DNA from: an uncultured Acidobacteriaceae bacterium
GTDB lineage: Bacteria > Acidobacteriota > Terriglobia > Terriglobales > Acidobacteriaceae
Direction: 5' to 3'
Length of the DNA: 64,000 nt
NCBI GenBank assembly: GCA_903828675.1
Contig: CAIKND010000182.1
Location: forward strand, 1 to 64,000
The position numbers and the translations under genes are program-made. The notes below the pieces were generated by a model, which had not been told where the DNA came from, ran no database searches, and saw nothing but the letters and a program-made list of their open reading frames with translations. Positions 2,659-61,859 of this stretch are shown piece after piece. Numbering within the stretch: position 1 is the first letter of the stretch; the number at the start of each line of letters is the position of its first letter.

Positions 2659-2698
2659 GTGCCCCACCCAAACCGCGCCTTTTGCGATTTGGGTGGGA
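2659..2698. repeat. GTGCCCCA-headed hairpin repeat
   Basis: CCCACCCAAA ... TTTGGGTGGG. Confidence 0.9.
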
Positions 2699-22455: not shown

Positions 22456-22470
22456 CGAAAAACACCGGGG

Positions 22471-22511
22471 TGCCCCATCCTTCCCGCGCACTTTGCAGGA
22501 AGGGTGGGAAA
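22471..22511. repeat. GTGCCCCA-headed hairpin repeat
   Basis: TGCCCCATCCTTCC-cgcgcacttTGCA-GGAAGGGTGGGA. Confidence 0.85.
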
Positions 22512-25966: not shown

Positions 25967-26076
25967 TTCCAGGTCTCGCTCCTGAAACCTGGAATTTGCA
26001 TGCGATACGGAATTCTGCACTTTTTCCCAGTGCCCCAGGTCCCAATTTCGGAACCTGGGATTCTTCCAGCCGGCTT
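25967..26076. repeat. Two adjacent CCAGGT-type hairpins
   Basis: TCCAGGTCTCGCTCCTGAAACCTGGAAT and GTGCCCCAGGTCCCAATTTCGGAACCTGGGATT. Confidence 0.75.
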
Positions 26077-27510: not shown

Positions 27511-27550
27511 CGTGCCCATCCATTCCGTGTTCTTTACGGAATGGGTGGGA
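27511..27550. repeat. GTGCCCA-headed hairpin repeat
   Basis: CCCATCCATTCCG-tgttcttta-CGGAATGGGTGGG. Confidence 0.9.
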
Positions 27551-27943: not shown

Positions 27944-28429
27944 ATGACCGTGAAAGCCCTCTATCCCGGCACCTTCGACCCGCCTACCAACGGCCACGTC
28001 GATCTCATCATGCGCGGAGCCCGCCTTTTCAGCCATCTCACGGTCGCCGTCCTCAACAATCCCGGCAAAAATCCGCTCTTCAATGTTGAAGAACGCGTCG
28101 AGATGCTCCGTGAGGTCACCAGTTCGCTCGATAACGTCTCCGTAGCCACCTTCAACGGCCTCATGGTCGAGTTTGCCCGCCGCGAGGGAGCCTCCGCCGT
28201 GCTGCGCGGCATCCGCGCCATCTCCGACTACGAATACGAGTTCCAGATGGCCCTGATGAATCGCCGACTGGCCCCGGAAATCGAGACCGTCTTCCTCCAG
28301 CCGGCCGGCCGCTATTCCTTCATCAGCTCGCGCATGTTGAAAGAAGTCTTCAGCTTCGGCGGCGAAGTCACCGGCCTGGTCCCGCCCAACGTCCTCAAGC
28401 GCCTCCGCGCCCGCATGAACAACGGCTGA
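27944..28429 (+). CDS. coaD: Phosphopantetheine adenylyltransferase
   Basis: ALYPGTFDPPTNGHVDLIMRGA, YEYEFQMALMNR, SSRMLKEVFSFGG. Confidence 0.97.
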   Translation: MTVKALYPGTFDPPTNGHVDLIMRGARLFSHLTVAVLNNPGKNPLFNVEERVEMLREVTSSLDNVSVATFNGLMVEFARREGASAVLRGIRAISDYEYEFQMALMNRRLAPEIETVFLQPAGRYSFISSRMLKEVFSFGGEVTGLVPPNVLKRLRARMNNG

Positions 28430-28546
28430 CGCCACCCGCGCAAAAACTCCGTGCCCCATCCATTTGTCATTCTGAGCAGCTTTGCTCGCGGCAGCGCGTT
28501 ACGTCCGGGGATGAGCGGCCGCCGTCCACCTCGCAAAAAAAGCTCC

Positions 28547-28586
28547 GTGCCCCATCCATTCCGCGCTCTTTGCGGAATGGGTGGGA
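28547..28586. repeat. GTGCCCCA-headed hairpin repeat
   Basis: CCCATCCATTCCGC-gctcttt-GCGGAATGGGTGGG. Confidence 0.92.
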
Positions 28587-28737
28587 CAGATCAACACTCA
28601 ACCGGGCCGTTCATCAGGAGCGGAGCGTAGCGGAGTCGAAGAACCTGCTTCTTGCAATTCATGGCTCAAGCGTGGGATAGCAACAATCCAACCCCGGATT
28701 TTGCGCTTCCCCCAAAATCTGTAAAGATAGAACTGCT

Positions 28738-29934
28738 ATGACAGTTTCTACTCCCGCAAAAGTATTCGCCGACCGCATTGGCCGGATCGAGGTCTCAGCA
28801 ACCATGGCCGTAGCCGCCGAGGCCGCCAAATTGCGCGCCCAGGGCGCCAACCTCGTGGATTTTGGTGCCGGAGAGCCCCATTTCCCCACGCCGCGACACA
28901 TCAAGGACGCGGCCATCGCCGCCATTGACGCCAACTTCACCCGCTATACCGTCGTTCCCGGCATTCCCGATGTGCGCAAGGCCATCGTCGAGCGCCACGC
29001 CACCGACTTCGGCTCCGACTACGACATCTCTGAAGCCATCTTCACCACCGGCGGCAAACTCGCCCTCTTCAACACCATTCAGGTGCTTATCGAGCATGGC
29101 GACGAAGTTATCCTGCCCGTGCCTTACTGGGTCAGCTTCAAAGACATCATCCAGTACGCTGGCGGCAAGGTGGTTTACCTCGAGACCAGCGAAGCCGAGA
29201 GCTTCCGCATCACGGCAGACGCCATCGAGAAGGCCATCACGCCCAAGACCAAGGCCATCATCCTCAACTCGCCGTCCAACCCCGCCGGATCGGTGGTGTC
29301 GGCTGAGGACCTCGAGCGCATCGTCCACCTGGCCCATGATCGCGGCATCTACCTGCTGCTGGACGAGTGCTACGTCTATCTCAACTACGCCGGCAAACCC
29401 GTCTCCGGCGGCTCATTCACCTGGGCCAAGGACCACATTGTGGTGCTCGGCTCGCTCTCCAAGACCTATGCCATGACCGGCTGGCGCGCTGGATTTGCCC
29501 TGGCGGCAAAGCCCATCATCGCCAACCTCAGCAAGCTCCAGTCGCAGTCCACCTCCAACGCCACCAGCTTCGTCCAGAAGGCCGCCATCGCTGCCCTGGC
29601 AGGTTCCCAGGAGTGTGTCACCGAGTTCCGCGCCGAATTCATCGACCTGCGGGACTACATGCTTGCCAGTCTGGCCCGCATTCCTGGAATCACCTGCACC
29701 AAGCCCGAAGGCGCTTTCTACGTTTACCCCAACATCTCCGCATACCTGGGCAAGGGCGGCATCAAGACCGCTACCGAGCTGGCCACACGCCTGCTCCACG
29801 AAGCTCATGTCGTCACCGTGCCCGGCGAAGCCTTCGGCACTGCCGAACACATTCGCATCTCCTACCCCGTCACAAAACAAAACATCGACGAAGGAACCCG
29901 CCGCATGGGCGAATTCCTCACACAGCTCAAGTAG
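28738..29934 (+). CDS. PLP-dependent aminotransferase (aspartate aminotransferase class I)
   Basis: DFGAGEPHFPTPRHI, NSPSNPAGSVVSAEDLERI, LGSLSKTYAMTGWRAGFA. Confidence 0.95.
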   Translation: MTVSTPAKVFADRIGRIEVSATMAVAAEAAKLRAQGANLVDFGAGEPHFPTPRHIKDAAIAAIDANFTRYTVVPGIPDVRKAIVERHATDFGSDYDISEAIFTTGGKLALFNTIQVLIEHGDEVILPVPYWVSFKDIIQYAGGKVVYLETSEAESFRITADAIEKAITPKTKAIILNSPSNPAGSVVSAEDLERIVHLAHDRGIYLLLDECYVYLNYAGKPVSGGSFTWAKDHIVVLGSLSKTYAMTGWRAGFALAAKPIIANLSKLQSQSTSNATSFVQKAAIAALAGSQECVTEFRAEFIDLRDYMLASLARIPGITCTKPEGAFYVYPNISAYLGKGGIKTATELATRLLHEAHVVTVPGEAFGTAEHIRISYPVTKQNIDEGTRRMGEFLTQLK

Positions 29935-47690: not shown

Positions 47691-47810
47691 GCCGATTTTC
47701 CCATTCCTAGCGCAATGCTCAGTGCTCCATCCTTACGGCTCTTCTCTATCGCAAGCGTGGGATGGAACGAACATGAGCGCCAAAACCCGCCAACTCACCG
47801 AAATCGCCCC

Positions 47811-47851
47811 GTGCCCCATCTTTGCGATTTTTCTCTATCGCAAGGGTGGGA
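47811..47851. repeat. GTGCCCCA-headed hairpin repeat
   Basis: CCCATCTTTGCGAT-ttttctct-ATCGCAAGGGTGGG. Confidence 0.9.
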
Positions 47852-52943: not shown

Positions 52944-52984
52944 GTGCCCCATCCATTAGCCTTCTTCCTGGCGAATGGGTGGGA
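52944..52984. repeat. GTGCCCCA-headed hairpin repeat
   Basis: CCCATCCATTAGC-cttcttcctg-GCGAATGGGTGGG. Confidence 0.85.
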
Positions 52985-58393: not shown

Positions 58394-58433
58394 GGTGCCC
58401 CATCCTCGCCACGCTTTTGTGGCTAGGGTGGGG
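58394..58433. repeat. GTGCCCCA-headed hairpin repeat
   Basis: CCCATCCTCGCCAC-gctttt-GTGGCTAGGGTGGG. Confidence 0.9.
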
Positions 58434-58479: not shown

Positions 58480-58519
58480 GTGCCCCATCCATTCCGCGCC
58501 TTTTGCGGAATGGGTGGGA
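58480..58519. repeat. GTGCCCCA-headed hairpin repeat
   Basis: CCCATCCATTCCGC-gcctttt-GCGGAATGGGTGGG. Confidence 0.92.
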
Positions 58520-61814: not shown

Positions 61815-61859
61815 GTGCCCCATCCTTGCCACGCTCTTGTTCTTGTGGCTAGGGTGGGA
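61815..61859. repeat. GTGCCCCA-headed hairpin repeat
   Basis: CCCATCCTTGCCAC-gctcttgttctt-GTGGCTAGGGTGGG. Confidence 0.9.

What the first reader, a model, noticed from the sequence alone, without database searches (positions are those of the whole stretch)
28547..28586. GTGCCCCA hairpin family with compensating arm changes
At least 8 copies share the flanks GTGCCCCATCC ... GGGTGGGA(A/C)AGC, while inner arms differ but remain complementary: ATTCCGC/GCGGAAT, TTGCCAC/GTGGCTA, TTTGCGAT/ATCGCAA, CTTCC/GGAAG, CCAAA/TTTGG. In most copies the ATCC arm pairs with GGGT through a T-G wobble, which is tolerated in RNA of one strand but gives A-C in the other, so the element has a polarity. This is direct covariation evidence that the structure matters.
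Basis: partly seen in the sequence, partly recalled or inferred. Interest (0 to 1): 0.75.

Follow-up and report, generated by a model that had tools for sequence, protein, structure and literature searches.

The report
One-way DNA hairpins of a transposase
These repeated hairpins are the footprints of a known kind of small DNA-cutting enzyme (a REP-associated transposase) in soil Acidobacteria, and they matter because nearly every copy points the same way relative to the chromosome's strand asymmetry instead of relative to the genes.

Summary
The window holds nine full copies, all on the + strand, plus truncated and degenerate ones. Its genome (GTDB genus of Terracidiphilus/Occallatibacter, Acidobacteriaceae) holds about 200 copies, with 0 for the reversed pattern. 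Covariation is strong: 105 cells with both sides changed against 36 in shuffles.

The hairpins are REP elements of RAYT transposases. In 24 of 31 RAYT-like loci of the genus, GTGCCCC-headed hairpins flank the gene on both sides, against 0 of 31 other Y1 transposase loci; in several the flank is exactly this ATCC...GGGT type. The proteins tested match NCBIfam REP-associated tyrosine transposase above cut-off, and one best matches solved TnpA-REP. The foot is GTGC, not canonical GT[AG]G.

Orientation ignores transcription but follows GC skew almost absolutely: GTGCCCCATCC lies on the C-rich strand 82:1. Among loci of many species agreement is 43/43 above |skew| 0.15 and chance-level below 0.06. 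This suggests insertion or survival coupled to replication through single-stranded DNA, as in IS200/IS605. That step is inferred, and which strand is leading was not resolved. An RNA or transcription role is not supported. Verdict: new variant of a known kind; the polarity is the interesting part.

The parts
28547..28586 (+). REP hairpin named in the finding: foot GTGC, 15-bp stem with T.G wobble at pair 5, loop CTCTT, 3' A; between a CTP_transf_like gene (27944-28429 +) and an aminotransferase gene (28738-29934 +)
28466..28640 (+). approximate extent of a longer dispersed composite repeat that contains the 28547 REP
   Evidence: close copies elsewhere in the genome share both flanks; ends estimated by eye
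28451..28465 (+). truncated REP: foot and 5' arm only (GTGCCCCATCCATTT), followed directly by the composite repeat
2659..2698 (+). REP copy, CCCACCC variant (C-G instead of T.G), between two - strand genes
22470..22509 (+). REP copy between two + strand genes
27512..27550 (+). REP copy with one C missing in the foot/stem base (GTGCCCATCC)
47722..47764 (+). degenerate REP copy (GTGCTCCATCC...GCGTGGGA); end approximate
47811..47851 (+). REP copy between two - strand genes (an AA_kinase/ACT gene and a semialdehyde dehydrogenase gene)
52944..52984 (+). REP copy between two - strand genes
58395..58433 (+). REP copy, first of a direct pair, between convergent genes
58480..58519 (+). REP copy, second of the direct pair
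61815..61859 (+). REP copy, long-loop type, between + strand genes
26030..26060 (+). sister-subfamily REP, GTGCCCCAGGTC..GACCTGGGA-like type with the same foot; the same type flanks RAYT genes in other genomes (L274, L285, L287)

Best explanation
The family is the REP element (single-stranded-DNA hairpin substrate) of REP-associated tyrosine transposases (RAYT, TnpA-REP) of Acidobacteriaceae. Each copy has a 5' foot GTGC, a stem starting CCCAT.../...GTGGG with a T.G wobble at the fifth pair, free inner arms and a pyrimidine-rich loop. Shown: repetition, covariation, polarity, flanking of RAYT genes mostly in inverted orientation, and orientation locked to GC skew and not to transcription. Inferred: RAYT recognises the hairpin on the GTGC-bearing strand and dispersed the copies as single-stranded DNA at replication forks, so copies insert (or survive) in one orientation relative to the strand asymmetry left by replication. 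In this genome no intact RAYT of the matching type was found, so the copies may be relics or be served by another RAYT.
For: RAYT-like loci carry GTGCCCC hairpins on both sides in 24 of 31 and on one side in 6; other Y1_Tnp loci 0 of 31 both, 1 one side. Exact ATCC...GGGT hairpins flank RAYTs in L273, L277 and L278 on both sides and in L275 on one. Four RAYT proteins match NF047646 REP_Tyr_transpos at 95-109 bits, cut-off 80; best solved structure for L275 is 4er8 TnpArep, E 2.6e-9; HUH and Y(I/M)HRNP motifs in the alignment. Foot G 95%, T 93%, G 94%, C 96% when copies were found by the stem alone. Orientation: 58/59, 37/37 and 26/28 copies on the C-rich strand in G000, G009 and G002; 41/43 in the single-contig chromosome G002; dose response over 108 loci of many species, 43/43 above |skew| 0.15; GTGCCCCATCC 82:1. 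Copies are mostly intergenic, with convergent sites favoured over divergent ones (52 vs 13 over four genomes).
Against: The foot is GTGC, not the GT[AG]G of canonical REPs (PMC6006769). The own genome holds about 200 copies but its best RAYT matches to the cognate type are a 55% one with a stop and a broken one of another REP type. No empty site was found to prove insertion. The skew of G002 has about 12 switches, not two, so 'replication direction' is not simply two replichores. Copies in G004, with near-zero skew, are randomly oriented (18/35). Other repeats are also skew-locked, so the lock is not specific to this hairpin.
Confidence: 0.85

Rival explanations
1. The hairpins are transcription terminators or RNA 3'-end structures of the adjacent genes, with polarity for the transcribed strand.
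For: Strong RNA fold; copies favour convergent gene ends over divergent promoters, 52 vs 13 in four genomes.
Against: Orientation is mixed relative to transcription; several window copies lie antisense between co-directional genes (2659, 47811, 52944); no T-run follows the stem, the downstream consensus being A-(C/A)-A-G-C; no Rfam match; RAYT association unexplained.
Confidence: 0.06
2. The hairpins are functional chromosome-polarity marks (such as FtsK-orienting or replication-priming sites) kept in one orientation by selection, not dispersed by transposition.
For: Near-absolute orientation relative to strand asymmetry.
Against: Copy number varies from 0 to 200 among species of one genus; arms are highly variable; elements flank transposase genes; other dispersed repeats of unrelated sequence show the same lock.
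Confidence: 0.05
3. A variant of the best explanation: REPs insert in both orientations, but copies with the hairpin in one orientation are lost (excised by RAYT or removed by hairpin nucleases on the lagging-strand template), leaving one orientation.
For: Sense and antisense hairpins differ in stability; IS200/IS605 excision depends on the lagging-strand template (PMC5371812).
Against: The few copies without the wobble follow the same rule; the energy difference is small against an 82:1 bias; the cluster of 13 similar, so presumably young, copies shows no wrong orientation (13/13).
Confidence: 0.25

Closest known systems
REP / REPtron systems with RAYT (TnpA-REP), e.g. E. coli TnpA-REP (PDB 4er8), Pseudomonas REPINs
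   Same: Short imperfect hairpins in intergenic space with a conserved 5' foot, many copies, flanking an HUH/Y1 transposase gene in inverted orientation
   Different: Foot GTGC instead of GT[AG]G; here mostly solitary or direct copies, not inverted REPIN pairs; orientation locked to GC skew
TIRYT / TIRtron elements of Acidobacteria (T. saanensis, K. versatilis, A. capsulatum, G. mallensis; PMC3733652)
   Same: Y1 transposases of the same bacterial phylum flanked by inverted repeats, some repeated in the genome
   Different: Described there as terminal inverted repeats, many with a GGGGWSAS motif, not as this GTGC-footed REP; sequences not compared directly here
IS200/IS605 single-strand transposons (IS608, ISDra2)
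   Same: Related HUH transposase; orientation of copies in genomes follows replication (PMC5371812)
   Different: Autonomous elements with subterminal hairpins; the other Y1 (IS200-like) loci of this genus carry no GTGCCCC hairpins

Membership tests
REP element of a RAYT system | short imperfect palindrome in many intergenic copies | tested here: met
   about 200 copies, mostly intergenic
REP element of a RAYT system | copies flank a tyrosine (Y1) transposase gene, usually inverted | tested here: met
   24/31 RAYT-like loci on both sides, 0/31 controls
REP element of a RAYT system | the transposase is a RAYT by curated model and motifs | tested here: met
   NF047646 above cut-off in 4 of 4 tested; 4er8 best structure
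REP element of a RAYT system | canonical 5' foot GT[AG]G at the stem | tested here: not met
   foot is GTGC at 93-96% per position; non-canonical feet are on record for some RAYT classes, so this is filed as a variant, not as a canonical REP
REP element of a RAYT system | RAYT binds and cleaves the single-stranded hairpin | not testable with these tools
   needs biochemistry
REPIN (inverted REP pair) | two REPs in inverted orientation as the mobile unit | tested here: not met
   window copies all + strand; within fetched stretches of G000 almost all copies share one orientation; inverted pairs occur in some other species (L076, L079)
Intrinsic terminator | stem followed by a T run, co-oriented with the upstream gene | tested here: not met
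Known structured RNA (Rfam) | match above gathering score | tested here: not met

The most novel reading that the evidence does not exclude
REPs in Acidobacteriaceae are inserted in a single orientation by replication-coupled single-strand transposition, so each REP is a readable arrow of fork direction. The many orientation and skew switches along single chromosomes would then report real fork-direction domains or very rapid rearrangement.
Probability: 0.35. Interest if true: 0.7.

Novelty: new variant of a known kind. Interest (0 to 1): 0.52.

Why it matters
How REPs move is still open. An orientation bias of this strength, scaling with GC skew across species and independent of transcription, is the signature expected if RAYTs act on single-stranded DNA at replication forks, and it makes that idea testable. 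No report of REP orientation tracking GC skew was found in the literature searched. The GTGC foot with its RAYT partners offers a natural variant for studying how the transposase reads its guide tetranucleotide.

Tried and rejected
Rfam search of the window: nothing. Empty-site search among fetched loci: none (the first version was swamped by gapped self-hits). A dif-like pattern to locate the terminus: no match in G002, G080, G009. Using dnaA, rRNA and ribosomal genes to decide which strand is leading: contradictory (dnaA of G002 at a plus-to-minus skew switch; the S10 operon on the REP-sense strand in G002 but opposite to nearby REPs in G080 and G005), so left open. Inheritance of skew from before inversions was considered, but orthologues that changed strand relative to the skew carry the GC3 skew of their present strand in 28/28 cases. 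Composition alone as cause: the element has 12 C and 13 G. The RAYT query was read by eye from L033 and its middle is only approximate; one search repeats the search with an exact protein.

Full report
What is there. The finding is correct in its details. The window holds nine full copies of GTGCCCCATCC-arm-loop-arm-GGGTGGGA type hairpins, all on the + strand, plus a truncated and a degenerate copy and one copy of a sister subfamily. The genome has 97 + 103 exact matches to the two-part pattern against 0 for its reversed control. Of the 35 other genomes sampled from the genus all but one (G032) carry it, and none of the 24 sampled genomes outside the family does.

Covariation. With copies selected only by their outer arms, the inner pairs 8-13 are complementary in 89% of 62 unique arm pairs, against 55% with shuffled partners. 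The pair counter gives 105 cells with both sides changed against 35.5 in shuffles, none of 500 shuffles reaching it, and sliding the register abolishes it. The foot GTGC and a 3' A are conserved at 93-96%. The sense strand folds better than its complement.

What it is. Y1 transposase genes of the genus were collected with PF01797 and with a RAYT protein. Of 31 RAYT-like loci, 24 have GTGCCCC-headed hairpins on both sides within 300 bases and 6 on one side; of 31 other Y1 loci none has both. The hairpin varies with the RAYT: GTTCATCGCG, AGGTCTC, CCGGTCCC, GTCCTAGC, and the ATCC...GGGT type of this finding. Four proteins tested match the curated REP-associated tyrosine transposase model, and L275 matches TnpA-REP 4er8 best among solved structures. 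This is the REPtron architecture described for other bacteria (PMC3733652, PMC6006769), with a non-canonical foot.

Polarity. Copies ignore gene direction but lie with the GTGC arm on the C-rich strand: 58/59 in G000, 37/37 in Occallatibacter savannae (G009), 26/28 in G002, but 18/35 in G004 whose skew is near zero. In the 5.99-Mb single-contig chromosome G002 the orientation follows the skew through about 12 switches, 41 of 43 copies agreeing. Over 108 loci from many species agreement rises from chance below |skew| 0.06 to 43/43 above 0.15. The skew is strand-specific and not transcriptional: third-position skew is positive in genes on the G-rich strand and negative in genes on the C-rich strand, and genes that changed strand between species have re-equilibrated in 28/28 cases. 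Copies that lack the wobble obey the same rule. A cluster of 13 similar extended copies is 13/13 and singletons 59/61.

Mechanism. Shown: hairpin, covariation, polarity, RAYT association, skew lock. Inferred: dispersal by RAYT through single-stranded DNA at replication forks, by analogy with IS200/IS605, whose orientation follows replication (PMC5371812). Not settled: which strand is leading, why single chromosomes have so many skew domains, whether orientation is set at insertion or by loss, and which enzyme moved the copies in this genome, where no intact cognate RAYT was found.

Limits. Gene strands come from a simple home-made gene finder, not from annotation. Only about 0.85 Mb of the own genome was read for the orientation counts, around known copies.

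Noticed in passing
G002 whole chromosome; L291-L330: GC skew switches sign about 12 times along one contig and dnaA sits at a plus-to-minus switch; not the usual two-replichore pattern.
   Followed up: partly
G000 fetched loci L036-L075: Other dispersed intergenic 10-mers with balanced G and C are also locked to the skew (GGCTTTAGCC 17:0, GGCGCACAAT 16:0, TGTCATTCTG 13:0, CAGATAATTA 10:0).
   Followed up: partly
window 28466-28640: A composite repeat of about 200 nt (GTCATTCTGAGC...GGATGAACGGCC...REP...CCGTTCAT) with many close copies in the genome; some REPs elsewhere sit inside an outer palindrome TATTGATCCGGC...GCCGGATCAATA.
   Followed up: partly
window 2730, 47870, 53010, 58550 (approximate): Short tandem heptamer-like tracts (CTATTCCC, ACTGTCC) follow several REP copies.
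   Followed up: no
L033/L266 (G000:C76) and L035 (G000:C100): The own genome's two RAYTs closest to the cognate type look broken (frameshift, in-frame stop) and carry other REP types.
   Followed up: partly
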